A stretch of 21,754 nt of DNA, from positions 1 through 21,754 of IMG/VR virus record IMGVR_UViG_3300037628_000534. One strand, 5' to 3'. Below the pieces are notes generated by a model. The model saw only the letters and a list, made by a program, of their open reading frames with translations, made no database searches and was not told where the DNA came from. How positions within the stretch are numbered: the stretch's first letter is position 1; every line of letters begins with the position of its first letter. This stretch comes from a virus. The translations under genes were made by a program, and so were the position numbers. Below, piece by piece: positions 540 to 17,642 of this stretch.

Positions 540-2060
540 ATGACCGCAAAGCCCAGCATCGCCAACCCCGAGATCGAGTACGACGCCCGAACACTGACGG
601 CGCTCCCCCAGGTGGACTTCTCTGACATAGCGACCTGGCCGGATACATCGGGTCAGGGCAACGACGCCACTCAGTTCTCCAATACCCGCAGATTCGAGGA
701 GAGGGGATTCAACGGCACGGAGCCGGATGTCAGGATGTTGGGTGTCGGCTCCGATGCCAGGTTCAGCTACGACGGTACGGTCTTTCAGGGCATCGGCGGC
801 TTCACATGGTTTGCCGTTATCCAAGCACTGGATCTGGCCACTGGTTTCGCCATCTTCGGGTCTTCCGTGAGTTCATCGTTCCCCAGGTTTCCTTCCATTC
901 TCGTGTTGCCTGACGGCTCCATCACTTACAACCATTCAGCCTTCCCGACTTACAACATCCAGTCGGCGGCTGGTGTGATCGTGGTCGGCACCAAGTACGT
1001 GATTAGCAGCCGGTTGTCCACCACTACTGGGATGATCCTTCGCGTGAATGGTGTCCAGGTCGGAGCCGACGCGGGCGCGGTCCAGGGCATCGTTGACAAT
1101 CAGAACGCGAGGATCGGTGAGCACCGCGACTCGACCAGCGGGGGCCTTGGTCAAGCCTTTGGCGACCAGAGGCAGTTCGCGTGGGTCAGTGGGTATAGCT
1201 CTGAGGCCTCCGCTGTCCAGATGGACGACCTGGAACGGTTTCTGGCCGACCGATTCAATGTGCCCGGTCTCGGCACCGTGAGGCCCAAGCCGACGATCTC
1301 CAATCCAGAGATCGAGTTCGATGTGAACAGCCTGAGTGGCTTGACGGATGGGGATGTACCGACGCCCTGGCCCGACACTAGCGGTCAAGGCAACGACGCC
1401 AGCCCCCTCGGAGGCGATCCGCCAACATACGAGGCAGGTGCCTGGGGGGACGATCACAGGGAGACCGTGAGGCTGCTCGAACCCGTCAACGGTGGCAGCT
1501 TCAATTTCGACGGCACCCCCTTCGTGGCCACAGACCTCACGATGTTTTTCGTCTTCCGAATGTTCCGGCTCACCGCTGCGTTCGGTAATGCGTTCATCGG
1601 AGGTTCATCGTTTACCGACTTCGCACAGGTGGAGCTATTTGTCAGGCTGAATGGGGCCATCGTTTTCAGCTTCGGAACAGACGAAGGGGCGACGTTGGCT
1701 GCGGAGAGTGCCGTAGGTTTGGTCTCGCCAGACGAGTCGTGTCATGTCCTGACCGTCAGGCACTCCAATTCCAGTGGCAAGATCATCCGCCTCGACGGTG
1801 TGCAGGTTGCCAGCAACCCCTCCGCGACTGGCAACCTCACACAATTTCCAGGTGCTAGAATCGCTGACGTAGCCAACCTGATCTTCATCGAAGACACGAA
1901 AATTCCTTGGATCGCTGGCTATTCCTCTGCAGCCTCTTTGGCCGAGATGGCGCAGATGGAGGCTTTCCTGACTGAGTTGTGGTGTGACCCGATTTCGCCT
2001 CCCGGAGTGTGGATCCCCCAGGGCACTCAGGTTCCTCCCACCAGCGACTGGGTGACCTGA
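540..2060 (+). CDS. Tandem LamG/concanavalin-A-like virion protein
   Basis: A 506-aa protein built from two related halves (about residues 3-248 and 249-490). Each half opens with P-x-I-x-N-P-E-I-E-[YF]-D, then W-P-D-T-S-G-Q-G-N-D-A, a 'F-x-[YF]-D-G-T-x-F' strand, a central beta-rich part with 'R-[VL][ND]G-V-Q-V', and closes with 'W-[VI]-[SA]-G-Y-S-S' plus a short helix. The WPDTSGxGNDA and 'G-Y-S-S' elements are typical of the LamG/Laminin_G_3 jelly-roll fold, which often binds sugars in phage adhesins and decoration proteins. A short C-terminal tail (I-S-P-P-G-V-W-I-P-Q-G-T) follows. The start at 540 is two bases after the previous stop; its own stop overlaps the next ATG by one base (TGATG). 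Carbohydrate binding and host recognition are inferred; the ligand is unknown. Confidence 0.72.
   Translation: MTAKPSIANPEIEYDARTLTALPQVDFSDIATWPDTSGQGNDATQFSNTRRFEERGFNGTEPDVRMLGVGSDARFSYDGTVFQGIGGFTWFAVIQALDLATGFAIFGSSVSSSFPRFPSILVLPDGSITYNHSAFPTYNIQSAAGVIVVGTKYVISSRLSTTTGMILRVNGVQVGADAGAVQGIVDNQNARIGEHRDSTSGGLGQAFGDQRQFAWVSGYSSEASAVQMDDLERFLADRFNVPGLGTVRPKPTISNPEIEFDVNSLSGLTDGDVPTPWPDTSGQGNDASPLGGDPPTYEAGAWGDDHRETVRLLEPVNGGSFNFDGTPFVATDLTMFFVFRMFRLTAAFGNAFIGGSSFTDFAQVELFVRLNGAIVFSFGTDEGATLAAESAVGLVSPDESCHVLTVRHSNSSGKIIRLDGVQVASNPSATGNLTQFPGARIADVANLIFIEDTKIPWIAGYSSAASLAEMAQMEAFLTELWCDPISPPGVWIPQGTQVPPTSDWVT
549..1997 (+). repeat. Two-copy intragenic tandem duplication (about 738 bp unit)
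   Basis: The first unit starts at 549 (aagcccagcatc) and the second at 1287 (aagccgacgatc), 738 bases (246 codons) apart. Matching anchors are the 'ggcaacgacgcca' segments at about 658 and 1389 and the 'ctctgaggcctc'/'ctctgcagcctc' segments at about 1199 and 1924. Identity is high only around the conserved protein motifs, so this is an old duplication that has diverged. Confidence 0.75.
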
Positions 2061-4291
2061 TGGCTGACAAGAACCGCAGGATCATCAACCTGCCCTACGG
2101 GGAGGGCCTGGAGCGGTCTAAGGGTGTGATGGTCATCAAGCCGACGAGCTTCGAGGACCTCAGGAACGTCTTCCTCTTCGAGGGGAAGGCGCAGGCGCGT
2201 GGCGGGCTGACCAGCACCGCCGTCCTGCAGGATGATGGACCCACGGATCTCGACGTGACGGTCCTGCTCGCTGCCCTGCGCTCAGAGGCCGCAGCCATCG
2301 GCATCGGGTACAACACGACAGGCGGGGCCAACCGCGAAGTATGGGTCAACCGGATGGACGTCAACGGCTCCAATCCACTGGCGGTCGGCCAACTCGGAAC
2401 GCTGTCGTTGAACGCGACGTTCACGCCACCGATCATCGTCGGAGCCGACTCCGACAACAAGTTCTTCATTGCCCATGACGAGCCGTTCCTCACCGATCGC
2501 TTCGTGACGGTGTTCTACGATCCCGGCCAGAACCCGGCCCTCATCAATCTGACCGCCGACCTCGACGGAAACGGTGACGCGGAGGTGTTCTTCCGTGGGG
2601 TCGTTAGGCATCTCAGCTACATCTTCGGCTGGGGCTACGGCAACGCCGAGGATCCCGACCGTGGCGACGTGGTGCGAGTCAGCGACTCCGGTGACAGCAC
2701 CCAATTCCAGGACTTCGCGTTCTTCGAGGCGGGACAGCGTGGCGAGCCCGTGATGGTCTGCCGCTCTGCGGGCAACAAGCTCATGGTCTTCAAGGAGACC
2801 GAGACGCACGCGATCTTCGGCTACTCGCCCGACACGTTCGGCATCCAGCCGTCTGACACGCTCTTCGGATGCGTGAGCAGCAGGCTCGCTGTGACAGTGG
2901 GGGGCACAGTCTTCTTCTGGTCCACGCAGGGGCCGAGGATCACAACGGGTGGTCCCTCCCAGGACATCGCCGTCCCGCTCGACATAGAAGGCCCGGATCC
3001 GACCACGCTGGTCGAAGAGTCCGAGGTCCAAGATGCCTTCGCGGAGTACGATCCGGCGACCAGGGTGGTGACGTTCGTCTGGGGGCGTCGGGTCTACGCG
3101 CTCTCCATCCGCAACCCGCAGCGGCCACGGTGGAGCTACTACGAACTCGGGGAGACAGCACAGTGCGGGGGACAGTTCTTCGATACCCAGTCCACGGTGG
3201 GTGGTGGTGGTGCGCCTACTGGAGCCCCTGAGAATCTGACGTTCCCCAACGCGCTGACGACCGACATTCTTGAGATCGCGGTGAACTTCGACAACGTGGG
3301 CGAGACAGGTGTCGGGACGCAGATCGAAGTGCAGGTCTCCAAGGACGCGGGCGCGACCTACACGGCGGTAGTAACCGTGGACTCGGACGGCGCAGCCACC
3401 AATCAGACCATCGTGATCCAGGAAGAGACCGTGGGGACTTCCATCAAGCCGCTCACGGACTACAAGATCGCCCTGCGCTACGTGAGGGGGGGGCTGCACT
3501 CCGTTGGCTACACGAGCACCGATCCCGAGGACTGGCCAGTTATCAGCACGGGCTCCACCACCACGGTCTCGAATGCTCCGTTCTGGGTCTTACGGACGGG
3601 TGGGAACACGGGTCTCTGGACCAGAAACTCTCCTACGGTGAATAGGATTATCAACACCATCGTCATCCCTACTGGCCACGAGTTCCTGGAGATCGAAGTC
3701 GAGGTCCAGATCGAAACTGATGGAAGCCCTGTCGTCCAGGACCTTGGTGACGGCACAGGGCCTCCCGACACGGTTGACCAGATTGAGACCCCCTTCGCCT
3801 TCCTCGTCCTCTTGGACCCTAACACGACGGTCCTCGACCGCCTGGATGCCGTGAGGAACAGGGAGAACGTCTACAGGGCTCGCTTCGTGAACACGCTCCA
3901 AGCGAACACCGGAGCGTTCGGTGCTCTCGCCCGCTCGTGGGCAGGTCCAGACCTTCCGACTGCCCTACAATTCGCCCTTGACTCCGGCAATGAAGGTTCC
4001 GCGTTCTGGCAAAACACGGGATCGCCTGCACGCGCTCCAACAGACTGCCCACCGGGAACACCCCCAGGGAGCCACAACACGGAGTTTTGGGTGACTGTGA
4101 ACTTTGGTGTTTGGAGCCTTGAAACGCAGACGGGTCCATTCAGCCAGGGAATTGAGAGCTTCGATCCAGGGGCGAGCTTTGGTGATGAGGTCTCAGTGGC
4201 GATCCGCCACAAGGTTCTTACTTGCTCGGCCTTCGGAGGGCCAGAACCCTCGTACAGCAAATTCACTACCACAGAGACGGAGGAGGTCTAA
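2060..4291 (+). CDS. Tail nozzle/hub-like protein with beta-rich C-terminal extension
   Basis: A 743-aa protein. I chose ATG 2060, which overlaps the previous stop as TGATG, over an in-frame ATG at 2009 that would overlap the upstream gene by about 50 bases. Residues 1-390 read like the propeller-type tail nozzle/hub proteins of podophages (T7 gp12 / P22 gp10 type): 'A-R-G-G-L-T-S-T', repeated beta strands, a 'K-L-M-V-F-K-E-T-E-T-H-A-I' strand, then 'S-S-R-L-A-V-T-V-G-G-T-V-F-F-W-S-T-Q-G' and 'F-V-W-G-R-R-V-Y-A-L'. Residues about 390-495 look like a fibronectin-type beta sandwich ('Q-V-S-K-D-A-G-A-T-Y'). Residues 496-743 are a further beta-rich, Thr/Ser/Gly-rich region. It would form the distal tail tube through which DNA passes. 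The N-terminal call is moderate; the C-terminal domains are unassigned. Confidence 0.6.
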   Translation: MADKNRRIINLPYGEGLERSKGVMVIKPTSFEDLRNVFLFEGKAQARGGLTSTAVLQDDGPTDLDVTVLLAALRSEAAAIGIGYNTTGGANREVWVNRMDVNGSNPLAVGQLGTLSLNATFTPPIIVGADSDNKFFIAHDEPFLTDRFVTVFYDPGQNPALINLTADLDGNGDAEVFFRGVVRHLSYIFGWGYGNAEDPDRGDVVRVSDSGDSTQFQDFAFFEAGQRGEPVMVCRSAGNKLMVFKETETHAIFGYSPDTFGIQPSDTLFGCVSSRLAVTVGGTVFFWSTQGPRITTGGPSQDIAVPLDIEGPDPTTLVEESEVQDAFAEYDPATRVVTFVWGRRVYALSIRNPQRPRWSYYELGETAQCGGQFFDTQSTVGGGGAPTGAPENLTFPNALTTDILEIAVNFDNVGETGVGTQIEVQVSKDAGATYTAVVTVDSDGAATNQTIVIQEETVGTSIKPLTDYKIALRYVRGGLHSVGYTSTDPEDWPVISTGSTTTVSNAPFWVLRTGGNTGLWTRNSPTVNRIINTIVIPTGHEFLEIEVEVQIETDGSPVVQDLGDGTGPPDTVDQIETPFAFLVLLDPNTTVLDRLDAVRNRENVYRARFVNTLQANTGAFGALARSWAGPDLPTALQFALDSGNEGSAFWQNTGSPARAPTDCPPGTPPGSHNTEFWVTVNFGVWSLETQTGPFSQGIESFDPGASFGDEVSVAIRHKVLTCSAFGGPEPSYSKFTTTETEEV

Positions 4292-4794: not shown

Positions 4795-5369
4795 TGGCGC
4801 GTGAATTCTTCAGTGGTGACGAACAGCAGGCACGGCAGGAGCGGCAGTTCGGGCGAGTCAGCAGGCGGGTGGAGAGCCAGGCCACGAGAGCGAGCGAGGC
4901 AGGCCTGCAGCGATCACTGGATTTCGACCCCTCCCAGGCGGTGGACCGATTCGGGTCGGGCTTCCTGGACGAGGCTCGTGAAGGTCTGGGTCAGGAGTTC
5001 CAGTCTCTCGTGGGCGGCTCCGTGGGACGTGGTCGTCTCCGCACTGGCTTCTTCCAGCGTGATGCTGGCCGTCTCTTCCAGGACTTCAACCGCCGGGTCA
5101 GCAACGCCATAGCCCAGCAGTCGCTGGAGGCGTCGAGACAGAGCCTGCAAAACATCCAGGGCTTGCAACGCAGCGGCAGCGACCTCCTCGGGCAGCAGAT
5201 CGATCTCCTCGGTGGTGCGTTCGACCGGGCCACAGCAGAAGAGAACGCCCAGGGTGGTGGCTTCTTCAGCAAGGTGGCGGGCTTTGCCGGAGCCGCCGCC
5301 GGCAGCTTCCTCGGCCCGCTCGGTGGGGCTGCCGGTAAGGCAATCGGCGAGAACCTCTTCAGCGAATGA
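4794..5369 (+). CDS. Internal virion / DNA-ejection-type protein (191 aa)
   Basis: The ATG overlaps the upstream stop (TAATG). Residues 1-150 are charged, Gln/Arg/Glu-rich and helical, with 'G-R-G-R-L-R-T-G-F-F-Q-R-D-A-G-R' in the middle. Residues 154-184 are a Gly/Ala-rich hydrophobic stretch. Helical body plus a Gly/Ala hydrophobic tail is the usual composition of small podophage ejection proteins (T7 gp14, P22 gp7 type) that leave the capsid and line a channel through the envelope. It is the first of three consecutive ejection-type genes, with 4-base ATGA overlap into the next. The role is inferred from composition and position, not from a diagnostic motif. Confidence 0.6.
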   Translation: MAREFFSGDEQQARQERQFGRVSRRVESQATRASEAGLQRSLDFDPSQAVDRFGSGFLDEAREGLGQEFQSLVGGSVGRGRLRTGFFQRDAGRLFQDFNRRVSNAIAQQSLEASRQSLQNIQGLQRSGSDLLGQQIDLLGGAFDRATAEENAQGGGFFSKVAGFAGAAAGSFLGPLGGAAGKAIGENLFSE

Positions 5370-6574
5370 CTTTCCGACCTAGTGTCCTACCGGACAGAGA
5401 CAACGACATCCTCTCGACGTTCACCAGGAGCTTCGAGCGTGCGCGTCAGCAGCGCCGGGCAGACCAGGCCGACTCACGGGCCCAGGGAGAGTTCGAGGCC
5501 CGTCAGGAGGACCGCCAGGCCCAGAGGCAGGACCGAATTCTCGAGGCCAATCTGGCCGTCGCGGAGGCTCCGGGTCTCTCGTTCGAGCAGGGGTTCGACG
5601 TCAACCAGCGGGGCACCACGGCCGAGGTCAGGCAGGGCGAGACCGGGCGTCTCCTCGGGGAGGCGCAGGGCCCCACACTCAGACTGCAGGACCAGGGTGT
5701 CGAGGTGGGTCGAGGGCCAGGTGGTCGGTCGATCTTCCGCAGCGAATTGGCCACGAGAGAGGGACGCCGGGAGACGGTGCTCCGGGAAGCGGAACTGGAG
5801 GACGAGGCGGGAGCGCCCGCGAGGAGACGGACGCTACAGGAGGAGGAGCGAGAAGCGGAGGCCAGGGCGACGGCGCTGCGTTCGCAGGGTGTGCCGGAGG
5901 CGGAGATTGCAGCCCTGAAGTTCGATGAGGCTGGTACTCGACAACGGCTCAACCTTGCCGCCACCGAATCGGCGCGAACGGCGAGACCGGCAACGGACAC
6001 CGGCACCGAACGGCTCCGGCAGCAGGACATCGATGCCATCAGTGAGCGGGCCGACGAGGCGGGCATAACCCTACAGCCGGGTCAAGCAGAGACACTCGCC
6101 AGATCGACGGCCGCCCAGATCGAAGACTTCTTCTCCGACTTCCCGAAGGCCGAGAGAGATCAGCTCCAGCGGCGAGTGGATGACCTGGTCGAGCAGCTCT
6201 CGAAGATCGACCTGAATACTGGCCTGCTGGATCGGGCGGAACAGAACAAAGCCAGGCAGCGTGCCATGAGGGACAGCGGCTTCCAGAATACGCAGCAACT
6301 CAACGCTGCCCAGGAGCGCCTACGTCAGTTCAGCGCGGGCCAGGGCGCGGTTCGCTCACGGAGGGAGCCCGCTCCAGGGCCTGCTGATGTTGACGGGTCT
6401 ACGTTGACCGACATACCCCAGGGTGAGTTCTCGTTCAGCCCGCAACAGCACGAGGAATTCACCGTCACCATCCAGGGCATGAGTCGTGATACTGCCGAAC
6501 AGATGTTGACCACGACCCTGCCGAACGCGACCCGAGCGGACATCGACGCCATCCTGGCCCTTCAGGGTCTCTAG
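5366..6574 (+). CDS. Internal virion-type coiled-coil protein (402 aa)
   Basis: The start is fixed by an ATGA overlap with the previous gene. The protein is very rich in Arg, Gln, Glu and Ala: residues about 20-60 and 130-190 read as long amphipathic helices or coiled coils. A Gly/Val-rich beta-like patch lies near residues 85-125, and residues about 330-402 carry a small conserved-looking C-terminal part ending 'A-D-I-D-A-I-L-A-L-Q-G-L'. There is no catalytic motif, signal or membrane segment. Between two ejection-type genes, it is probably the middle internal core protein (compare T7 gp15 by gene order). I cannot place it in a named family. Confidence 0.6.
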   Translation: MTFRPSVLPDRDNDILSTFTRSFERARQQRRADQADSRAQGEFEARQEDRQAQRQDRILEANLAVAEAPGLSFEQGFDVNQRGTTAEVRQGETGRLLGEAQGPTLRLQDQGVEVGRGPGGRSIFRSELATREGRRETVLREAELEDEAGAPARRRTLQEEEREAEARATALRSQGVPEAEIAALKFDEAGTRQRLNLAATESARTARPATDTGTERLRQQDIDAISERADEAGITLQPGQAETLARSTAAQIEDFFSDFPKAERDQLQRRVDDLVEQLSKIDLNTGLLDRAEQNKARQRAMRDSGFQNTQQLNAAQERLRQFSAGQGAVRSRREPAPGPADVDGSTLTDIPQGEFSFSPQQHEEFTVTIQGMSRDTAEQMLTTTLPNATRADIDAILALQGL

Positions 6575-6580
6575 GGCACT

Positions 6581-9500
6581 ATGGCCACCGGCCAGAGCAA
6601 CCAGCAGCTCCAGGATGACCCACTCGCTGCACTGAGGCGTGCTCGCGAAGAGTTCGACCAGAGGCAGGAAGCGGAGCGCGGCGGGGACGACCCGCTTGAG
6701 GCGCTCAAGGATGCTCGCGCACGGTTCGACGCGCAGTCGGACATCCCAGATCGCGAAGCTCCACAGCCGCCAGAGCCCGGCTTCATCCAGCGGGTCACCA
6801 GTACCTTCCGTGAGCGCGGACCCTTTCTTCCGGTACGTGACTTCATCGACAGGCGGCGAGCTGAGAGTCAGGAGAGGAGGGATGTAGCCGAAGCTGAGAC
6901 CGGCGTGCGGCCGGGCGGCTTCCGTGTACCTGAAGGGAAGATGCGCGACCCGTTCGATCCTGGTCGGAGCCTTCTCGGTATCGGCCCGCGTCTTCCTCCT
7001 AGCCTCGTGGACATCCCCAAGGAGGATGAACCCAGCGCACTGGGTGGGCCCACACTCGCGGAGGCCCTCGGTCGGAACCAGGCGTTCGAGTCTATCGACG
7101 CACCACAGGCCCCGGAGCGCCGTGTGCGTGGCCCCGAATCACCGGAACAGAAGATCGCGAGGGAGGACCGGGAGTTCGAGTTGCAGGTCGAGCGAGAGCT
7201 GTTCACCGGGGAACGTCGCGGGGTCGCCAGCGACCAGCCGTTCGTGCCCTCGGAGGAAATAGTGCCAGGGCGAGGGACACTGCTTGAGTTGGCGAAAGCC
7301 GGTGTGGATTTGGCCAAGAGAGGTGCTGTCACGGCAGTCGGGAAGGTAAAAGAGTTCGGTCTCGGCACAGCGGAAGGGTTGCGGCGTGGCACAGCGGCAG
7401 AAGAACAGCGACGGATCGATGAAGGAACAGACTTCGTTGAGGAGTTCGTCTCCAACCGGGCGGCCGAGGCCGACGCCGCCGCAGCGCGTGAGACCAGCAT
7501 GGAAGCGAGTGCTGCACCTCCGCGACCCGCCAGGTTCCGGCGTGCGAGGGGTGCAGAGGAGGTGTCGGCCGCTCTGAGCCGCGCACTGGAGCGGGACCAC
7601 GCTGCATTGCAGGAGAGGTACGACTCCTTCCCGCTGCCCGTCCGTATGGCCCACGCGGCCGTGAGGGGTGCCTTCAACGCACCAGCCCTTGGCCGCATCG
7701 ATGAGCTGGTGGCCAAGGCGAACGGTGTGGTGTCGGCGGCGTTCGGTCTCGACGCCCCAGCCCTCACGACAGCAGAGGTGTTCGAGATCGTGGAGCGCGG
7801 GCTCCTGGATAAGGGTGCTGGTGGTGCCGGCTTCCTGGTTGGCGCGGGAGTCACATTCGGTGCAACGAACCGCCTCGTGGCCTCGTTCGCACCGTTCACA
7901 CGCAGCGGTACGACGGCGCGGACCATCCTGGAATCGTTCGATCCGAATAACCCGGTCTCGGGGGGCGTCAGGGCACTGCAGGGAGCGGTCGAAGGCGTGC
8001 CGTTCGATCTGGCGTTCAAGGCCGACACCCCAAGGGAGAGGATGATCAACCTGGGGGCAGGCCTGGTCATCGGTGCGTGGCTGGGACCGATAGTCGGCGG
8101 CGCAATCCGAAGGGCTGGAGATCTGGATCCGCGCATCTTCGATCCGACCACAGCCATCGGTGCGGTCAGGGCTGGGCCGGATGTCCTCATTCCGACGCGG
8201 ACTCGCCGGGTGCCACTCGCGCAGCAGCCGCTCCGTCAGGTGCTGGAGGAAGAGACCGCTCGGCTCGAGGCCGGAGCTGCCCGCATCAAGGCAGCGGATG
8301 CGCCTCCACCGAGGGAGCTGGAGGCACCCGTGGAGCAGCCCGGTCCAGGGCACATCGGTCCCGAGACTGTCGATCCAGAACTGCGAGGGCGTAGGGTCAG
8401 TGAGCGCGAGGGCTCACCGGGCCGACGTGTGGAGGACCTGGAGCCGAACCGTATAGACGAGCTGGATCCACCGCCGGATCCCGATCAGCTCACACCCCAG
8501 GAACGCATCACTGGTCGGCGCAACCCATCTCGCGACATCGATGAGCGCACTGGTCTGCTGAACGAGAGCGCCTGGGAGCGGGCACTGATCCGCGTCCAGG
8601 GGCCGAAGGATGCAGATGGACGGCTCATCGATCCGTCTGGTTCCGCTGATCCGAACACTGAGGTCCTGCTCTTCGACCTCACACGCTTTAAGGCCATCAA
8701 CGACCTGATCTCCATGGAAGCCGGAAACGCGAAGCTGCGTGAGATAGCCGACCTCATACGAGACCACTCGGGCATCTCGAACCGCCAGATCTTCCGGGCG
8801 GGCGGTGACGAGTTCGGGATCATCGTCCCGACGGGCACGGGCCAAGCCATCGGTCGCCGGATCCAGAAGATCGTGGGCGAGACCCCGATTGGTGACACCG
8901 AATTCTTGTTCAGCGTCCGCTTCGGCGTGGGCCAGAGCGATGTGCTCGCGAACCGTGCCATGTCGAGCGCGAAAAAAGTGGAGACAACGCCGAGGTTCCG
9001 GGGCGAAGGTGGAGAGCCACTAACCCGTCCCAGCGCACGTCAGTCGGACGTCGCGCATACCCGCACGACAGCAGACCGCTTCAACCCGGAGGTCCAGGTC
9101 AGGGAGCGTCCCGGCCCTGAAGGCCCGGCCGGTTCTCCGAAAGTCAGACCGCGTGACGCCGCCGACCCGCCGCCACCGGAGGTTCCTGTCGGCAGGCAGG
9201 CCGACGACGAGGGCGGGTTCTTCCCGCTAGAGGAAGGCGCGTCTGCCGCACGCGGCACCACTGTGTCGGAGTTGACCGTGGCAGAGTTGGGCAAAGAGGC
9301 TGGCGGGGTGGACCCCAGAGCCATCGCCAAGGGCGTGAGGGCAGTGAAGGGCTTCTTTAGGAGGCACTTCACGTCTGCTGGTGACCTGCCCCAGCACATC
9401 TTCCGGCTGAAGCTCAAGGCCGACCAGTGGGTCCAGGCCCAGATGGGCGAAGTGAAGTTCATGCTCCGCAGGTACGACGACACGTTGAGGGATCTCTACG

Positions 9501-12019
9501 GGGGCGACGGTCCCTCGCAGGAGATCAAGGACCAGATCAACCAGGCCTTGCGCGGCCAGCTCGACCCCGATGAGGTCTTGGATCCGTTACTCGCGCCCAT
9601 CGTCAAGCGGCTTCGCGAACACGTAGACAGCTTCTCCAGCCAGATGATGGAGTCGGGCATGGTGAAGGGGAAGCTGGTGCCGGTGATCGCCGACAACATG
9701 GGCGTCTATCTCAGCCGGTCGTACCGGGTCTTTGACGATCCCAACTGGGCGCACAAGGTCCCGAAGGATGTCAGGAACCGGGCCGAGAACCTCATCCGAC
9801 TGGAGCGACCCAACGCCACCGAGGAAGAGATCCAGGGCATCATCGAAGGCATCCTCTCCAAGGAGAACACCAGCCCGCTGGCGTTCCTGGGAGGTGGCTC
9901 AGTAGCCAGCAAAGACCTGTCGATGCTGATCAAGAGGAAGGACATCCACCCTTCCATCCGTGCCCTGATGGGCGAGCACACAGACGTCAGGCTCAACTAC
10001 GCGAGAAGCGTGGAAAGGATGGCCAACACCCTGGCCAACCACGAGTTCCTGACTGAGGTGGCGAGGACCAGCGTCGGCACACCCGGCAGGGCTGGCGGCT
10101 TCTTCTTCCAGAATCGTGAGGTCCGAGGGGACCAGAGGTTCATCACTGAGTTCGCCGCGTCGGGTTCCGAAACGATGGCACCGATGAACGGCCTGTTCAC
10201 CACACCGGAGATCCATAAGGCCTTCGAGACGGCGTTCGGTAGACAGGCCCAGGCACCGGGCTGGCTCAATGCGTACATGAAGGTGAACGGTATCGTGAAG
10301 TTCGATAAGACGGTGCTGTCTCTGATGACCCACGTCAGGAACGTGCTCGGCAACGTCGGCTTCGCAGTAGCGAACGGGCACTGGCGTATGCAGCATCTCG
10401 GCCGGGCCCTCGAAGCAGCGAACGCTGGGCTCGGAGCCACCCAGGCGGGGAGGAGACTGAGGTCGAAGGTGTTGAGCCCGATTGGTCTCGGCGGGAAGGT
10501 CGTCAAGGAACTGACGCCGGAGCAGATCGCGAGGCAGGAACGGCGGCTGCGCGTGCAAGGCACGGGCGCACAGAGAGGTACACTGCTGTCGCCGTGGGAG
10601 CGGTACTACCAGAACCTCCAGGCCCTCGGGGTGGTGGATCAGAGCGCACACGCCGGGGAGCTTCAGGCCATCATCAGGGACGCCGCTCGCTCGGGACTCG
10701 ACAACGTAGAGCCCGACTCGAACCTGTTGTCCAGGGCGATCAAGACGGGCCTCGAAGTGACCGGAGCCCTCTACCGTGCGGAGGACGATCTCTGGAAGGT
10801 GATCGCGTTCGAGAACGAGTTCGCCCGGTACAGGAAGGCGATGCCGAACGCCTCCCAGTCCGAGGTCGAAGAGACGGCTGCCTGGATCGTGAGGAACACG
10901 TACCCGACGTACAGCATGGTGCCCTCCGGGGTCAGGGCTTTCCGTCGCAACATCGCGGTGGGATCGTTCACCTCGTTCCCGGCCGAAGTCTTCCGCACCA
11001 TGTACCACACGATCTCCATCGCCCTGAGTGAGGTGCGGTCGCCGAACGCTGGGATTCGGAAGATCGGTGCCGAACGGATGGCGGGTATCGCTGTCGCCAC
11101 GACGCTGGTGCCCGCTGCCGTGTCGGCGTCACGCTTCTTCGTGGGCGTGGACAAACAGCAGGACCAGGACTTACGCCACTTCGTCGCACCATGGCAGCAG
11201 AACAGTTCCTTCATCTATCTGAGCAAAGGCGAGGACTCGACGTTCGACTACGTTGACATCTCCTATACTGACCCACACAGCTATGCGCGGGACGCGATCA
11301 TGGCCGCGCTGACGGGCGACGGGGACTGGGGCGAGAAGCTGCTGCTCGCCACCCTCCAGGCCACACAGCCGTTCCTCGGTGAGGAGATCCTGTTCGGCAA
11401 GATGCTCGACTGGCGGCGGAACAGCACACCCTCCGGCCGGACTGTGTTCAACCCAGAGGACTCCCTCCCTGATCAGGCAACCGACATCTTCGCCCACTTC
11501 TACGACGCGCTTGAGCCGGGCACCCTCACGTCAGCACGTAGGGTGGCGAGAGGAGCCCGAGGAGAGACCTCGCCGACCGGCAGGGTGTTCAATGTCGAGA
11601 GGGAGATCAAGGCCGTGCTGACCGGCAGCCGCCGGCAGACGACGAGCGTCCCCCAGTCCCTGATGTTCCGTGCCAGGTCAACCCAGACCCGCATCAGGAA
11701 CGCCAACAGCATCCTCACCAGGACCGCTAACCGGAGGGGCACCGTTAGCGAGGAGGAGCTGACTGCAGACTTCTGGGACTCACTGCGGTCGCGGGAGAAG
11801 GTCTTCGCGGAGTCACACGAGATGGCGCAGGCAGCGATACGGTTGGGCATGACCCAGGTCCAGGTCGAGAGAGCCCTGCGTTCCGAGAACATCAGCCGGG
11901 CAGACGCACGGGCCATTGTCGAAGGGACCGGGCCACCGCGCAGACGGACGGACGCGGGCAACGCCGAACGCAACGCCATACTGCGAGCCCTCGAAAGAGA
12001 GGCAGAGGAACGTCGCTGA
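6581..12019 (+). CDS. Giant internal virion/ejection-type protein carrying a GGDEF domain
   Basis: An 1812-aa protein, the largest gene here. Residues 1-330 are charged and low in complexity. Residues about 330-520 hold an Ala-rich helical part with two Gly-rich hydrophobic stretches (about 412-432 and 488-510). Residues about 650-800 are a GGDEF domain: T-G-L-L-N (657-661), F-D-L-T-R-F-K-A-I-N-D (698-708), F-R-A-G-G-D-E-F-G-I (738-747), S-V-R-F-G-V-G (778-784) and an A-N-R-A-M-S-S-A-K helix near 790-798. Low-complexity, Pro-rich linkers flank it. Residues about 930-1812 form a long helical region of the kind found in large phage internal or polyvalent proteins ('T-H-V-R-N-V-L-G-N' near 1250). 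Position after two other ejection-type genes and before the endolysin matches the largest internal core protein. Ejection with DNA into the host is inferred; cyclase activity is not proven. Confidence 0.7.
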   Translation: MATGQSNQQLQDDPLAALRRAREEFDQRQEAERGGDDPLEALKDARARFDAQSDIPDREAPQPPEPGFIQRVTSTFRERGPFLPVRDFIDRRRAESQERRDVAEAETGVRPGGFRVPEGKMRDPFDPGRSLLGIGPRLPPSLVDIPKEDEPSALGGPTLAEALGRNQAFESIDAPQAPERRVRGPESPEQKIAREDREFELQVERELFTGERRGVASDQPFVPSEEIVPGRGTLLELAKAGVDLAKRGAVTAVGKVKEFGLGTAEGLRRGTAAEEQRRIDEGTDFVEEFVSNRAAEADAAAARETSMEASAAPPRPARFRRARGAEEVSAALSRALERDHAALQERYDSFPLPVRMAHAAVRGAFNAPALGRIDELVAKANGVVSAAFGLDAPALTTAEVFEIVERGLLDKGAGGAGFLVGAGVTFGATNRLVASFAPFTRSGTTARTILESFDPNNPVSGGVRALQGAVEGVPFDLAFKADTPRERMINLGAGLVIGAWLGPIVGGAIRRAGDLDPRIFDPTTAIGAVRAGPDVLIPTRTRRVPLAQQPLRQVLEEETARLEAGAARIKAADAPPPRELEAPVEQPGPGHIGPETVDPELRGRRVSEREGSPGRRVEDLEPNRIDELDPPPDPDQLTPQERITGRRNPSRDIDERTGLLNESAWERALIRVQGPKDADGRLIDPSGSADPNTEVLLFDLTRFKAINDLISMEAGNAKLREIADLIRDHSGISNRQIFRAGGDEFGIIVPTGTGQAIGRRIQKIVGETPIGDTEFLFSVRFGVGQSDVLANRAMSSAKKVETTPRFRGEGGEPLTRPSARQSDVAHTRTTADRFNPEVQVRERPGPEGPAGSPKVRPRDAADPPPPEVPVGRQADDEGGFFPLEEGASAARGTTVSELTVAELGKEAGGVDPRAIAKGVRAVKGFFRRHFTSAGDLPQHIFRLKLKADQWVQAQMGEVKFMLRRYDDTLRDLYGGDGPSQEIKDQINQALRGQLDPDEVLDPLLAPIVKRLREHVDSFSSQMMESGMVKGKLVPVIADNMGVYLSRSYRVFDDPNWAHKVPKDVRNRAENLIRLERPNATEEEIQGIIEGILSKENTSPLAFLGGGSVASKDLSMLIKRKDIHPSIRALMGEHTDVRLNYARSVERMANTLANHEFLTEVARTSVGTPGRAGGFFFQNREVRGDQRFITEFAASGSETMAPMNGLFTTPEIHKAFETAFGRQAQAPGWLNAYMKVNGIVKFDKTVLSLMTHVRNVLGNVGFAVANGHWRMQHLGRALEAANAGLGATQAGRRLRSKVLSPIGLGGKVVKELTPEQIARQERRLRVQGTGAQRGTLLSPWERYYQNLQALGVVDQSAHAGELQAIIRDAARSGLDNVEPDSNLLSRAIKTGLEVTGALYRAEDDLWKVIAFENEFARYRKAMPNASQSEVEETAAWIVRNTYPTYSMVPSGVRAFRRNIAVGSFTSFPAEVFRTMYHTISIALSEVRSPNAGIRKIGAERMAGIAVATTLVPAAVSASRFFVGVDKQQDQDLRHFVAPWQQNSSFIYLSKGEDSTFDYVDISYTDPHSYARDAIMAALTGDGDWGEKLLLATLQATQPFLGEEILFGKMLDWRRNSTPSGRTVFNPEDSLPDQATDIFAHFYDALEPGTLTSARRVARGARGETSPTGRVFNVEREIKAVLTGSRRQTTSVPQSLMFRARSTQTRIRNANSILTRTANRRGTVSEEELTADFWDSLRSREKVFAESHEMAQAAIRLGMTQVQVERALRSENISRADARAIVEGTGPPRRRTDAGNAERNAILRALEREAEERR

Positions 12020-12510
12020 TGGCCGGCAACAACTACGGAGCCACGAGCCTCCAGCGGCTGGCTACCGTACACCCGGAGCTGGAGAACCTGATGAAGGCGG
12101 TGGGTGAGCACTTCCCCAACACCATCCTGGAGGGCGAGCGCACCGTCGAGCAGCAGGAGAAGAACGTCGCCAAGGGCGTGAGCAAGACGATGAACTCCAA
12201 ACACGTCCGATCACCAGCCGAGGCCGTGGACGCCGCTCCTGACCCCCTTGCCTGGCCCCAGGCGGCGAAGCTGCTGTCCCGTATAGAGACCGTCGCCGGG
12301 CAACTCACCGATGAGCAGGGCGCGGAGGTCATGGCGCTGGTCGAGGGGTACGTCAGGGAGGTGTCGAGGTGGTACTACTTCGGGGGGTTCGTCCTTGGCT
12401 ACGCCCAGGAGCTGAACGTCGAGATCCGGTGGGGAGGCGATTGGAACTCAAACCGTCAACTAGAGGACCAGACGTTTCACGATTTACCTCATTTTGAAAT
12501 CAAGCTGTGA
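12019..12510 (+). CDS. Endolysin, M15-type L-alanyl-D-glutamate peptidase
   Basis: A 163-aa protein, overlapping the previous stop as TGATG. Residues 59-71 read N-S-K-H-V-R-S-P-A-E-A-V-D and the C-terminus has W-G-G-D-W (near 138-142) and D-L-P-H-F-E (155-160). This is the S-x-H-x(8)-D ... D-x-P-H-F-E pattern of peptidase M15 (VanY/CwlK-like) endolysins. Predicted zinc ligands are H62, D71 and H158, with D155 next to the last. It would cut the L-Ala-D-Glu bond of peptidoglycan stem peptides. It has no signal peptide, so it should depend on a holin, and two membrane-protein genes follow immediately. The length is normal for a single-domain enzyme of this family. Confidence 0.9.
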   Translation: MAGNNYGATSLQRLATVHPELENLMKAVGEHFPNTILEGERTVEQQEKNVAKGVSKTMNSKHVRSPAEAVDAAPDPLAWPQAAKLLSRIETVAGQLTDEQGAEVMALVEGYVREVSRWYYFGGFVLGYAQELNVEIRWGGDWNSNRQLEDQTFHDLPHFEIKL

Positions 12511-14516: not shown

Positions 14517-14739
14517 CGACCTGGTTGTGGATCGACGGCATGAATCCCTCGAAGTGCATCCTCGTGCGACCACACTTCTTGCACGTCGCGTTGGGCAAAG
14601 GGCTCAGTCTCGCATCGCCACAGAACACTTTTTTGTCGGGCTTCACGAACCGATGGCAGACCTCACAGACCGGGATGAACGTCGCCCCGCCGTCGTAGGT
14701 CACCCTCCACAGATTCGGGTAGTCGCAGTCAGTGTGCAT
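14509..14739 (-). CDS. Zinc-ribbon protein (76 aa)
   Basis: ATG 14739 overlaps the helicase stop (TGATG), with GAGGT upstream. C-E-V-C at residues 25-28 and C-K-K-C at 53-56, with Cys 40 and His 62 between and after, indicate a zinc ribbon. It has no enzyme motif. It sits between the DnaB-like helicase and the VRR-NUC nuclease, so it could be a DNA- or protein-binding accessory of replication. Confidence 0.72.
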   Translation of the reverse strand: MHTDCDYPNLWRVTYDGGATFIPVCEVCHRFVKPDKKVFCGDARLSPLPNATCKKCGRTRMHFEGFMPSIHNQVDD

Positions 14740-15668
14740 CAGTCATCGACCTCGAACTCACGGGCGTCACACTGCCGGGCTCGGAGCGTATTGTAGTCCC
14801 ACATCAGCGGGATCTCCCCGCAGGATCCGTGGCGGTTCTTCGCGGCCAGGAGTTTGATCATCGCCTGGTGTCGCCCGGTCTCCTTGTAGGTCGTGTGGTC
14901 CAGCAGCATCACCTGGTCCCCATCGTTCTCCAGCGAGCTGCCGCCCATCATGCCTTGGACCTTCGGACTCTCCGTCGAGCCTGACGTCGCCCGGTTGAAC
15001 TGGCTCACGCCGATGGACACTGCGCCAAGCTCCACGGCCGTCGAGCGCACCGCGTGGCTGACCTCCATGATCCGGTCGCTCATCTTCTCTGCGTTGCCAG
15101 TCCAGGCCAACTGCAAGTAGTCGGTCACGAAGCACTTCACGCCCCGGAACTCGTGGAGGTAGCGCATCGACGCGACGATGTCTTCGAGTTGGGAGATCGG
15201 CCTATCGTTGGTGAGCAGTACGCCACCGTTCTCTTCGTAGTTCGTCTCCAGCATCTCGTTCGCTTCGAGGGCGGTGGGCTCGTCATAGCGTGGGCCCCAC
15301 TCCAGGTTGCTGATCCGCTTCCCGGTATGGATGGCCATGTAGCGGGTGAGGAGCTGGGGCTTGCTCATCTCCAGGCTGATGATGCCGACCTTCTCGCCCT
15401 TCTTCACCGCGTGAGCTGCCAGGTTGATGGCCACGAGGGATTTCCCCATCCCCGTGTTTCCGGCCAGCATGATGTGCCAGCCCCTGGCCAGGCCCGTGCC
15501 TCCTCCCTCGTCCCCGCACACGGCGTTCCAGGCCGCGTAGGGCGTGGTCACCACCATGTCTGGGGTCCAGTTCTTCTTGGCTTCGTTGAGGGCCTGTAGC
15601 TCGTACCCTAGGGCCTCGACGTAGGGGGGCGTCTCCTGCTCTGCGAGGTGTCGCGCCTCCCGGTACAC
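14739..15668 (-). CDS. DnaB-like replicative helicase
   Basis: A RecA-fold helicase. With a GTG start at 15668 it has 309 aa: Walker A G-N-T-G-M-G-K-S (residues 70-77), 'I-S-L-E-M-S' (catalytic Glu near 100), Walker B 'C-F-V-T-D-Y-L-Q-L' (179-187), 'S-Q-F-N-R' (222-226) and 'K-N-R-H-G' with a downstream Arg for the subunit interface (277-281). These match the C-terminal domain of DnaB; most of the DnaB N-terminal domain is missing, as in several phages. The frame is also open up to an ATG at 15896, but that adds 76 Glu/Asp/Pro-rich residues overlapping the upstream gene by about 190 bases, so I prefer the GTG. It probably forms a hexamer unwinding DNA at the fork, loaded by the protein encoded just upstream. 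Confidence 0.9.
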   Translation of the reverse strand: MYREARHLAEQETPPYVEALGYELQALNEAKKNWTPDMVVTTPYAAWNAVCGDEGGGTGLARGWHIMLAGNTGMGKSLVAINLAAHAVKKGEKVGIISLEMSKPQLLTRYMAIHTGKRISNLEWGPRYDEPTALEANEMLETNYEENGGVLLTNDRPISQLEDIVASMRYLHEFRGVKCFVTDYLQLAWTGNAEKMSDRIMEVSHAVRSTAVELGAVSIGVSQFNRATSGSTESPKVQGMMGGSSLENDGDQVMLLDHTTYKETGRHQAMIKLLAAKNRHGSCGEIPLMWDYNTLRARQCDAREFEVDD

Positions 15669-15703
15669 GGCGAGTTCCGCCTGCGTACCGGACGACAGCA
15701 GCG

Positions 15704-16381
15704 TCAGAGATTGGCGAGTGGATCGCTCTTCTTCTTCTTGGGGTTCTTCGGAGTGGTCTTCTTCGGGGTAGTCTTCGGGCTGCGGCCCTTCGTCTGCCCC
15801 CCTGGTATCTTCGTGAGGTCCCTGCTCGTCGGTCTCTTCCACTGGGCATTCCCCTTCGCCTGGCTGTTGGTCTTGGCCTTGTGCTTCTCCCTCCACCTGT
15901 TGTCGGTGCCGAAGAAAACGGCGGCGTGCATGGTGTACTGCTCGTCCTCCCCGGCTCGAGCCCTGGCATACCGCTTCGTCGCCTCGAACAAGGTACGTGC
16001 TCCGACCGGAGCTTCATCCTTCCGGGAGCCCTTCCGCGTGGCAGCGTAGGCGTGGTAGCCCTTCTGCTTGGCGACCTTCCTTGGGTAGAGCTTCCACACC
16101 TCCTCGAAGTCCTGCTTGAGGTCGGTCTCCTGGACCTGGAAGATGATGCGCCACTGCGTCTTGCTCTCGACGCTGATGTGGCCACGGGTCTGCAACCGCG
16201 TGAAGAAGCTGCTGACCTCAGTGAGGGGCCAGCCCCACCTCTCCATGTAGGGAAGGATGGGGATGACCCCTCGCCGGTCGGCCAACTGGAGTATGTCCAG
16301 CCAGGCCTCCTGGGGATTGTACGGCTCGCCCTCTGTCGCCCACACCCTCGTGAACGCGGTCCTCTCTACCGTGATCGTCAC
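15704..16381 (-). CDS. Replication initiator / helicase-loader-like protein
   Basis: A 225-aa protein starting at GTG 16381, overlapping the stop of a tiny upstream gene (GTGA). Residues 1-80 look like a winged helix ('G-W-P-L-T-E-V-S-S-F-F-T-R-L' as recognition part). Residues about 90-165 carry 'F-E-E-V-W-K-L-Y-P-R-K-V-A-K-Q-K-G' and then 'A-V-F-F-G-T-D-N-R-W', the layout of phage replication proteins that pair with DnaB-type helicases (lambda O / DnaD-like). The last 50 residues are a Lys/Pro/Thr-rich tail. It is followed 35 bases later by the helicase start. Origin binding and helicase loading are inferred from motif and neighbour. Confidence 0.72.
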   Translation of the reverse strand: MTITVERTAFTRVWATEGEPYNPQEAWLDILQLADRRGVIPILPYMERWGWPLTEVSSFFTRLQTRGHISVESKTQWRIIFQVQETDLKQDFEEVWKLYPRKVAKQKGYHAYAATRKGSRKDEAPVGARTLFEATKRYARARAGEDEQYTMHAAVFFGTDNRWREKHKAKTNSQAKGNAQWKRPTSRDLTKIPGGQTKGRSPKTTPKKTTPKNPKKKKSDPLANL

Positions 16382-16470
16382 ATCCGTGGCTGGAACAGGG
16401 TGAGCAGGACCCAGGCGATGGCAGCAGCGATGAGCGCAGCCAGCAGCATCCCGGCCAGCATCTGCCTCAT
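16378..16470 (-). CDS. 30-aa membrane microprotein
   Basis: This very short frame reads M-R-Q-M-L-A-G-M-L-L-A-A-L-I-A and continues as a single hydrophobic helix with W-V-L-L-T-L-F, ending Q-P-R-M. Its ATG overlaps the RecT stop (ATGA) and its TGA overlaps the next GTG (GTGA). A GGAGG lies close upstream; in-frame ATGs at codons 4 and 8 could also serve. Fitting exactly between two genes with 4-base overlaps at both ends, in a genome where nearly all genes are joined that way, argues that it is translated. Function unknown; it would sit in the inner membrane. Confidence 0.6.
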   Translation of the reverse strand: MRQMLAGMLLAALIAAAIAWVLLTLFQPRM

Positions 16471-17267
16471 GCCTCCTCTCCGATCAACTCCTCACGCCGG
16501 GCCTCATCCAAGCTCTCACTCAATTCCTTCTGGGCCTGCTGTGCCTGCTCTGCCATGTCCTCCTCAATGGACTCGGCGGTGTCCCTGTCCGTCGTGGAGG
16601 TGGAGTAGCCCACATCACCCCGGTTATCCATCTCAATGGCCAGAGCGAGGTTCGGTGAGAGGTCCAGCCACTTCAGCACCCGCTTGATCAATGTCTTCTT
16701 CCCCATCGCTGCGTAGTCGGTCTTCCACGGGCCACTGCTGCCGGCCTTCGAGCGAGCCCTGATCTTGTCCACGTCCCCCCGGGGTGCGTACTCGTGGACG
16801 GTGGTCCCGTTCGACAGGGTGGCCACGGCATAGAAGCCGGTGATCTGGCCGTCGTCCCTCGGCTCCTCACCCAGCAGCGGGACGTGTTCGATCATCTCTT
16901 GGGTGCCCTGGATGACGTGGAACAGGTCACCCTCGTAGACCTCCCTGGCCACGAGCTTGGTCACGTCACCGTTCTTGAGCGCGAGCTTGATGAGACCTCG
17001 GTAGTCGGGAATCATCTGGCACTTCCTGCCGTAAGGCACGAGGTGTGCCCCGCCGATGGGGCTGTTGATCTCCAGCCCTAGCTGGCTGGACACCATGATC
17101 GCCTCGACCACTGAGATCGGGTCGCACTCCAGGAGCTTGGGGTTACGAACGCAGGCCAGCCGGGCCAGTCGCACCACTCGTTTCGCGTCCTGGCCCGGCG
17201 GCAGGATCTCTTGGATCTTTGCCTCCTGGGAGGCGATGATCTCGGGTAGGTTTCTCTTCTCAGCCAT
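16467..17267 (-). CDS. recT: RecT-family single-strand annealing protein
   Basis: A 266-aa protein with a near-perfect ribosome binding site (AAGGAGGATAAGC before ATG 17267). It has the RecT core: 'L-A-C-V-R-N-P-K-L-L-E-C-D-P-I-S-V-V-E-A', 'Q-L-G-L-E-I-N-S-P-I-G-G-A-H-L-V-P-Y-G', 'M-I-P-D-Y-R-G-L-I-K-L-A' and 'W-K-T-D-Y-A-A-M-G-K-K-T-L-I-K-R-V-L-K'. The tail (about 225-266) is acidic and Gln/Glu-rich. RecT proteins bind single-stranded DNA left by an exonuclease and anneal it to complementary strands. A matching exonuclease lies two genes upstream in the same unit, so this is a two-part recombination system. It overlaps the upstream gene by 8 bases. Confidence 0.92.
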   Translation of the reverse strand: MAEKRNLPEIIASQEAKIQEILPPGQDAKRVVRLARLACVRNPKLLECDPISVVEAIMVSSQLGLEINSPIGGAHLVPYGRKCQMIPDYRGLIKLALKNGDVTKLVAREVYEGDLFHVIQGTQEMIEHVPLLGEEPRDDGQITGFYAVATLSNGTTVHEYAPRGDVDKIRARSKAGSSGPWKTDYAAMGKKTLIKRVLKWLDLSPNLALAIEMDNRGDVGYSTSTTDRDTAESIEEDMAEQAQQAQKELSESLDEARREELIGEEA

Positions 17268-17505
17268 GCTTATCCTCCTTCAAATAATCCTCGGTCGAGC
17301 CCGGTATGGGCTTCCGATGTTCGTCTGCCTGTGGGCAGGTGGCGAAGTGTGAGATGTAGGTGGGAATCATCCTGACGTAGAGTTGTTCGGCGTCGGGGGT
17401 GTGTTTCATAACGAACCTCTTCTCGGGTGGGTCCAGCGGCACCCTCTTCCCGCTCTCCGTCCTCCCCCACACGATCTCCTGCTGGCACGTCCTGCACCTG
17501 GCCAT
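17260..17505 (-). CDS. Small zinc-finger-like protein (81 aa)
   Basis: ATG 17505 overlaps the stop of the 45-aa gene (TGATG). The N-terminus is C-R-T-C (4-7) followed by 'G-K-R-V-P-L-D-P', and a second half-site H-F-A-T-C is at 53-57, giving C-x2-C ... H-x3-C. This 'C-x2-C then R-x-P-L-D' arrangement is common in small phage proteins of unknown function. It overlaps the RecT start by 8 bases. Confidence 0.75.
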   Translation of the reverse strand: MARCRTCQQEIVWGRTESGKRVPLDPPEKRFVMKHTPDAEQLYVRMIPTYISHFATCPQADEHRKPIPGSTEDYLKEDKHG

Positions 17506-17642
17506 CAGAGCTTGCGGTGCAGGACGGAACGGTGAAGCCTACAGAGCTTCGTGGGCTTCCCGGTACGCACGTCACACTCGACCGGATTCCCACAACGCTT
17601 CCCCTTCTTTTTGGTCTGGTTCACGGCTGTGCATTGGGGCAT
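17505..17642 (-). CDS. 45-aa Cys-rich protein
   Basis: Begins at ATG 17642, overlapping the exonuclease stop (TGATG), and ends overlapping the next ATG in the same manner. Cys 4, 17, 23 and 34 and His 37 are spaced like small zinc-binding phage peptides of the form C-x-A-x(n)-G-x-x-C-x-N-P ... C-R-L-H. It is highly basic (K-K-K-G-K-R). A role in binding nucleic acid or a partner protein is possible but not shown. A much longer frame to 18008 lies antiparallel in phase with nothing and is a shadow of the exonuclease gene. Confidence 0.7.
   Translation of the reverse strand: MPQCTAVNQTKKKGKRCGNPVECDVRTGKPTKLCRLHRSVLHRKL

What the first reader, a model, noticed from the sequence alone, without database searches (positions are those of the whole stretch)
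8531..8980. GGDEF (diguanylate cyclase-type) domain inside a giant ejection-type virion protein
Residues about 650-800 of the 1812-aa protein match a GGDEF domain from the T-G-L-L-N entry to the terminal A-x-x-A-x-x-x-A-K helix. Against the PleD cyclase as I remember it: metal Asp (D699) kept, second Asp replaced by Thr (T701), Lys 704 and guanine-contacting Asn 707 kept, the other guanine-contacting Asp changed to Asn (N716), R739 and the full G-G-D-E-F (741-745) kept. The feedback site R-x-x-D, expected nine and six residues before the GGDEF motif, is missing (I732, R735). Low-complexity linkers flank the domain, as in a domain insertion. If the protein is injected with DNA, the phage would deliver a feedback-blind cyclase, or a nucleotide sensor with altered base choice, at the first moment of infection. 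It might raise c-di-GMP, make another cyclic nucleotide, or only bind nucleotide.
Basis: partly seen in the sequence, partly recalled or inferred. Interest (0 to 1): 0.87.

Follow-up and report, generated by a model that had tools for sequence, protein, structure and literature searches.

The report
Exchangeable cyclase-like cassette in ejection protein
A bacteriophage carries, inside a giant virion protein that is probably pushed into the host cell with the viral DNA, a domain shaped like the bacterial enzymes that make the signal c-di-GMP; close relatives of the phage carry a toxin-like kinase in exactly that place, so the spot looks like a slot for swappable weapons.

Summary
ORF 6581-12019 (1812 aa) holds a real GGDEF domain at residues about 641-801: Pfam E 1.3e-9; predicted fold with pLDDT 88.5, matching diguanylate cyclase structures at Z 17. 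The metal ligands (D699, D743, E744), N707 and phosphate lysine K798 are kept. The guanine-binding Asp is Asn (N716), the phosphate Arg is lost (T802), and the RxxD feedback site is absent. The carrier is supported as a virion ejection-type protein: its core is homologous to Cellulophaga phi18:3 gp123, found in virions by mass spectrometry; its best, though weak, structural match is T7 gp16; gene order resembles T7 14-15-16. Among 94 family members the same position holds ADP-ribosyltransferase (14), GGDEF (3), zeta toxin and others. In the nearest syntenic phages a zeta-type kinase replaces the GGDEF in place. GGDEF domains in such polyvalent proteins were already reported (Iyer 2017), so this is a variant of a known kind. 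New here are the in-place exchange, the missing feedback site in all 21 domains of this phage set, and Asn at the guanine contact in 7. Activity and product are untested.

The parts
6581..12019 (+). 1812-aa ejection-type polyvalent protein (whole ORF)
   Evidence: phrog_22602 'virion structural protein' E 8.5e-32; homologous to phi18:3 gp123, identified by MS/MS
7571..8260 (+). conserved N-terminal region, residues about 331-560, with a hydrophobic segment near 488-510
   Evidence: 41% identical to L010/L012 over 332-563; hydropathy
8516..9070 (+). exchangeable cassette slot, residues about 646-830
   Evidence: alignment to L011/L010: identity 0.46-0.54 before, 0.13-0.22 inside, 0.48-0.50 after
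8501..8983 (+). GGDEF (palm) domain, residues 641-801
8675..8677 (+). D699, metal ligand (DgcR D174)
8699..8701 (+). N707, guanine contact (DgcR N182)
8726..8728 (+). N716 in place of the guanine-binding Asp (DgcR D191)
8801..8815 (+). GGDEF motif, residues 741-745
8972..8974 (+). K798, gamma-phosphate Lys kept (DgcR K289); the Arg four residues on is T802
8984..9295 (+). right linker, residues 802-905, rich in P, R, E, D, G and S
9296..12016 (+). helical core, residues 906-1812, not recognised by Pfam; T7 gp16-like by weak structural match
   Evidence: AF2 pTM 0.80; top two of 928 chains are T7 gp16, Z 7.7 and 6.3
5366..6574 (+). 402-aa protein in T7 gp15 position
   Evidence: gene order only; 36-45% identical to L010-L012
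4794..5369 (+). 191-aa protein in T7 gp14 position (gp14 is 196 aa)
   Evidence: position and size; weak BLASTP E 0.02
2054..4291 (+). 745-aa virion protein upstream
   Evidence: phrog_511 'internal virion protein' E 1.9e-6; phrog_3287 'virion structural protein' E 9.6e-6
12019..12510 (+). endolysin
   Evidence: phrog_465 'endolysin' E 1.4e-32

Best explanation
The 1812-aa gene product is an internal virion (ejection) protein of a tailed, probably podovirus-like phage. Its C-terminal helical core does the T7 gp16-type work, and just before the core, between flexible linkers, lies a slot that exchanges effector cassettes. In this phage the cassette is a GGDEF palm domain. When the protein enters the host with the DNA, the domain binds Mg-NTP through D699/D743/E744, N707 and K798. 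Two copies pair and make a cyclic dinucleotide without the RxxD brake, shifting host signalling or occupying a nucleotide-based defence before any phage gene is expressed. Shown: the fold, kept and lost residues, cassette exchange, and homology of the core to a proteomically confirmed virion protein. Inferred: ejection into the cytoplasm, catalysis, product and purpose.
For: Fold. Residues mapped on DgcR. Homologue in virions by MS/MS. T7 gp16 as top two structural matches of 928 chains, with T7-like gene order and sizes. Slot contents in 94 members: ART-PolyVal 14, LPD1 4, LPD3 4, GGDEF 3, MuF_C 2, zeta toxin 1, RadC 1 and others, i.e. the published polyvalent-protein repertoire. In-place exchange GGDEF/zeta kinase between syntenic phages most of whose neighbouring genes are 60-88% identical. 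GGDEF domains recur in large phage proteins, with the metal Asp, K332, N335 (PleD numbers) and GDE retained in nearly all of 21 domains.
Against: The guanine Asp is Asn and the phosphate Arg is lost. The TIGR00254 cut-off is narrowly missed. The domain sits on a very long branch. A cyclase needs two domains face to face, while T7 gp16 has only a few copies per virion (about 3 by the T7 record note). The gp16 match is weak (Z 7.7, rmsd 7.5; Foldseek found nothing at E<=0.001), and a profile comparison with gp16 gave nothing. No protease motif that would free the domain was seen (no HExxH).
Confidence: 0.5

Rival explanations
1. The cassette is a degenerate GGDEF domain: it keeps the fold and perhaps nucleotide binding but makes no product, and serves as a nucleotide or c-di-GMP sensor or decoy, or as a spacer in the ejection protein.
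For: N716 for Asp, T802 for Arg, T701; long branch; other phage copies are clearly degraded, e.g. L205 with Glu/Asn and GDKF.
Against: All metal ligands, K704, N707, the exact GGDEF motif and K798 are kept at about 25% overall identity; the slot otherwise often holds enzymes.
Confidence: 0.33
2. It is an active cyclase with changed base choice: Asn at the guanine Asp lets ATP in, giving 3',3'-cGAMP or mixed dinucleotides, perhaps as decoys against cyclic-nucleotide defence.
For: Asn in 7 of 21 domains of large phage proteins against 0 of 17 stand-alone viral and 0 of 30 best-scoring bacterial domains. Hypr GGDEF enzymes change product through this same position (Ser), and natural Ser/Thr enzymes always have D rather than E in the motif; the window has D.
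Against: Asn is not discussed in the passages of that paper that I read; Asn has Asp's length, so it may keep guanine or bind poorly; no host or defence system is known for this phage.
Confidence: 0.12
3. Ordinary host-derived diguanylate cyclase sequence joined to a phage gene by assembly error.
For: Metagenomic contig with one copy only; the tree does not reject a place among canonical cyclases (p-AU 0.34).
Against: One continuous frame with phage sequence conserved up to both edges of the slot; two further core-family members, L030 and L105, carry GGDEF in the same slot; the domain is far from all GGDEFs found here.
Confidence: 0.03

Closest known systems
Polyvalent proteins with GGDEF domains (Iyer et al. 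2017, PMC5512222), e.g. Acetonema longum WP_004096050.1
   Same: Large phage protein predicted to be packaged and injected, with a GGDEF domain beside other conflict domains; same repertoire in the slot (ART, zeta, RadC, LPDs, MuF-C).
   Different: Here the core is a gp16-like virion family that Pfam does not recognise, only one effector is recognised, and an in-place exchange between close phages is shown. No metallopeptidase motif in this copy.
Diguanylate cyclases PleD, WspR, DgcR and 3ign (Marinobacter)
   Same: Fold; Mg ligands; Asn of the guanine pocket; phosphate Lys; GGDEF motif.
   Different: Asp to Asn at the base contact, Arg to Thr at the phosphate, no RxxD site, no sensor domain or dimerising coiled coil recognised.
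Hypr GGDEF enzymes (GacA, PMC6456294)
   Same: Change at the same base-contact position together with a D (not E) in the motif.
   Different: Asn here, Ser/Thr there; an I-site (R393) regulates GacA, none here.
T7 gp16 internal virion protein
   Same: Position after gp14- and gp15-type genes; large size; helical core with T7 gp16 as best structural match.
   Different: No sequence similarity found; no transglycosylase domain recognised; carries an effector slot.
Stand-alone GGDEF proteins of YuA-like and Bordetella phages (YuA gp44, 156 aa)
   Same: Phage GGDEF domain; same best PHROG family for the domain, phrog_5594.
   Different: Not fused to a virion protein; encoded outside the late gene block, beside an anti-restriction gene.

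Membership tests
GGDEF domain (PF00990) | profile score above the curated cut-off | tested here: met
   38.5 and 43.9 bits against 23.8
GGDEF domain (PF00990) | GGDEF fold | tested here: met
   Z 17.1 to 3ign, 16.9 to PleD over residues 641-801
Diguanylate cyclase (TIGR00254) | score above the NCBI cut-off | tested here: not met
   36.7 bits excised, 31.6 whole, cut-off 37.4
Diguanylate cyclase (enzyme) | Mg ligands (Asp of strand 1, the two acidic residues of GG[DE]EF) | tested here: met
   D699, D743, E744
Diguanylate cyclase (enzyme) | guanine contacts Asn and Asp | tested here: not met
   N707 kept, Asp replaced by N716
Diguanylate cyclase (enzyme) | gamma-phosphate contacts Lys and Arg | tested here: not met
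   K798 kept, Arg replaced by T802
Diguanylate cyclase (enzyme) | makes c-di-GMP as a dimer | not testable with these tools
   needs biochemistry
I-site-regulated cyclases | RxxD just before the GGDEF motif (positions -9 and -6) | tested here: not met
   I732/R735; absent in 21 of 21 domains of this set, present in 10 of 17 stand-alone viral and 25 of 30 bacterial
Polyvalent proteins (Iyer 2017) | large protein near late virion genes, predicted to be packaged | tested here: met
Polyvalent proteins (Iyer 2017) | unlike effector domains combined or swapped on one protein family | tested here: met
   slot contents in 94 members, exchange; a single recognised effector in this copy
Polyvalent proteins (Iyer 2017) | a second known polyvalent domain (metallopeptidase, LPD, ART) in the same protein; common in the class but not required of each copy if the virion core counts as a domain | tested here: inconclusive
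   Pfam finds only GGDEF; no HExxH; the core itself is a conserved virion domain not in Pfam
T7 gp16-type ejection proteins | structural similarity of the core | tested here: inconclusive
   Z 7.7 and 6.3, top two of 928, but weak for a helical protein; Foldseek and hhalign gave no match
T7 gp16-type ejection proteins | enters the host with the DNA | not testable with these tools
   needs a translocation experiment
Hypr GGDEF | Ser/Thr at the base-contact position | tested here: not met
   Asn716 (definition)

The most novel reading that the evidence does not exclude
The phage delivers in its virion a ready-made, brake-free cyclic-dinucleotide synthase with changed base choice (taking ATP as well as GTP), from a phage-specific class of GGDEF domains. 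The product acts at time zero on host signalling or as a decoy for cyclic-nucleotide defence, and relatives swap this enzyme for a zeta-type kinase or ADP-ribosyltransferase in the same slot as hosts change.
Probability: 0.12. Interest if true: 0.88.

Novelty: new variant of a known kind. Interest (0 to 1): 0.56.

Why it matters
Polyvalent ejected proteins were proposed from genome analysis in 2017, and GGDEF was listed as a rare member; I found no experimental test of one in the papers searched. This case gives a clean comparison: closely related, syntenic phages that differ by one cassette (GGDEF or zeta-type kinase) in the same ejection-type protein. If the domain is active it would be a second-messenger enzyme delivered before transcription starts, and the recurrent Asn at the guanine contact makes substrate choice directly testable.

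Tried and rejected
Single-sequence scan of IMG/VR with the core found nothing; the alignment scan found hundreds. Stand-alone GGDEF hits in proviruses (L002-L005, L162-L166 and others) look like ordinary cyclases, not virion proteins. Shared ancestry of the cores of the other giant GGDEF proteins L167, L168 and L169 with the window core: no support (hhalign probability under 1%), so GGDEF seems to sit on several unrelated scaffolds. One single acquisition of GGDEF by the core family (window, L030, L105) is weakly rejected (p-AU 0.026), with the caveat of long branches. Foldseek of the core against the PDB gave nothing at E<=0.001. PADLOC: no hits. Selection on the domain (dN/dS) could not be tested because no close copy of it was found.

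Full report
What was checked. The window is a 21,754-base virus record of IMG/VR. ORF 6581-12019 encodes 1812 aa without a stop. Residues 692-783 match Pfam GGDEF at E 1.3e-9, and no other Pfam family is convincing. AlphaFold2 with 38 related domains gives pLDDT 88.5 for residues 641-810. The model matches diguanylate cyclases over nearly its whole length: 3ign at Foldseek E 4e-10, Z 17.1 to 3ign and 16.9 to PleD. This is far beyond chance.

The active site. DgcR, a solved cyclase, binds Mg through D174, E217 and E218, guanine through N182 and D191, and the gamma phosphate through K289 and R293 (PMC8041772). The window has D699, D743, E744, N707 and K798 at these places, but N716 for the base-binding Asp and T802 for the phosphate Arg. 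T701 replaces an Asp that is not a listed metal ligand. The product-inhibition motif RxxD is absent. So the metal centre is intact and substrate contacts are partly changed: catalysis is possible but not assured.

The carrier. The C-terminal half (about residues 906-1812) is homologous to Cellulophaga phage phi18:3 gp123 (E 3e-29), whose record says it was identified by MS/MS proteomics as a virion structural protein, and to proteins of Pseudoalteromonas phage Y3, Pelagibacter phage HTVC027P and phage 023Pt_psg01. The predicted core is helical (pTM 0.80). Foldseek found no significant match. In the second look by VIA-align the two best of 928 chains are both T7 gp16 (9jyy_I Z 7.7; 7eyb_I Z 6.3). 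This is weak for a helical protein, but it is the functionally expected answer. Upstream lie proteins of 191 and 402 aa, in the order of T7 14-15-16; downstream lies an endolysin. Ejection into the cell is an inference from this.

The slot. Scans of IMG/VR and of GTDB genomes gave many relatives of the core. In 94 non-redundant members (the window included), the stretch of up to 480 residues before the core contains ART-PolyVal (14), LPD1 (4), LPD3 (4), GGDEF (3), DUF7178 (2), MuF_C (2), ATLF (2), and one each of zeta toxin, RadC, LPD37 and others. The nearest relatives L010-L012 are syntenic over the window, with most neighbouring genes 60-88% identical. Against L011 the identity of the ejection protein is 0.46-0.54 over residues 451-565, about 0.3 up to 650, 0.13-0.22 within 651-830, and about 0.5 again from 831; there L011 has a P-loop kinase of zeta-toxin type. 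This is an in-place cassette exchange. GGDEF in the same slot of L030 and L105 is only distantly related; one common acquisition by the three is weakly rejected (p-AU 0.026).

A wider class. GGDEF domains occur in many other large phage proteins (L167, L168, L169 with LPD38, L194, L196, L200, L201, L203, L205, L216 and others), on cores not visibly related to this one where tested. Of 21 such domains (window included; the set also holds a few proteins of 245-780 aa, some of which may be cut by contig ends), none has the RxxD site, against 10 of 17 stand-alone viral domains (Fisher p 4e-5) and 25 of 30 top-scoring bacterial ones. Asn replaces the base-binding Asp in 7, against 0 of 17 and 0 of 30. 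The p-values ignore shared ancestry, the two viral groups were sorted by me partly on protein size and context, and the bacterial sample is of best-scoring domains only.

What is known. Iyer et al. 2017 defined polyvalent proteins and reported GGDEF domains among them as 'not very widespread', suggesting interference with nucleotide-based host responses (PMC5512222). The zeta-like kinase is listed there too. Stand-alone GGDEF genes are known in YuA-like and Bordetella phages. In Hypr enzymes a change at the same base-contact position alters the product (PMC6456294). In the Panoptes system a relative of the fold makes cyclic dinucleotides as decoys in defence against phage (PMC12657218).

Conclusion. 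The finding is real and well described. It is a new variant of a known, largely untested kind: an exchangeable effector cassette in an ejection-type virion protein. Most likely it is a nucleotide-binding and probably catalytic domain without product control; a degenerate domain is the main rival. The step from fold to function needs the assays listed.

Noticed in passing
L010:7037-12715 and L011:6986-12712 (residues about 690-860): The syntenic relatives carry a zeta-toxin-type P-loop kinase in the slot that holds GGDEF in the window.
   Followed up: yes
L208:6582-12791, residues 470-612: A GGDEF-like domain in which the SGDEF hairpin comes before the DxD strand, as if circularly permuted.
   Followed up: no
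window 2054-4288: Only the first 397 of 745 residues are conserved with L010-L012 (72-74% identity); the rest is replaced, as in host-contact proteins.
   Followed up: partly
window 540-2057: A protein of two similar halves sharing 'WPDTSGQGNDA', like lectin-type (LamG-like) repeats.
   Followed up: no
L006:4227-14492 (Pseudoalteromonas phage Y3): A 3421-aa polyvalent protein with methyltransferase matches is encoded directly before the core-family protein, which itself carries an ADP-ribosyltransferase domain.
   Followed up: partly
L169:5154-13718: A 2855-aa provirus protein with GGDEF and LPD38 (Pfam), and possible ParB-like, ART and HExxH metallopeptidase regions seen by eye.
   Followed up: partly
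L223:7932-8402 (Pseudomonas phage YuA gp44): Stand-alone GGDEF protein beside an anti-restriction gene; shares its best PHROG family with the window domain.
   Followed up: partly
window 14739-18706, minus strand: Replication and recombination module: DnaB-type helicase, RecT, YqaJ exonuclease.
   Followed up: no
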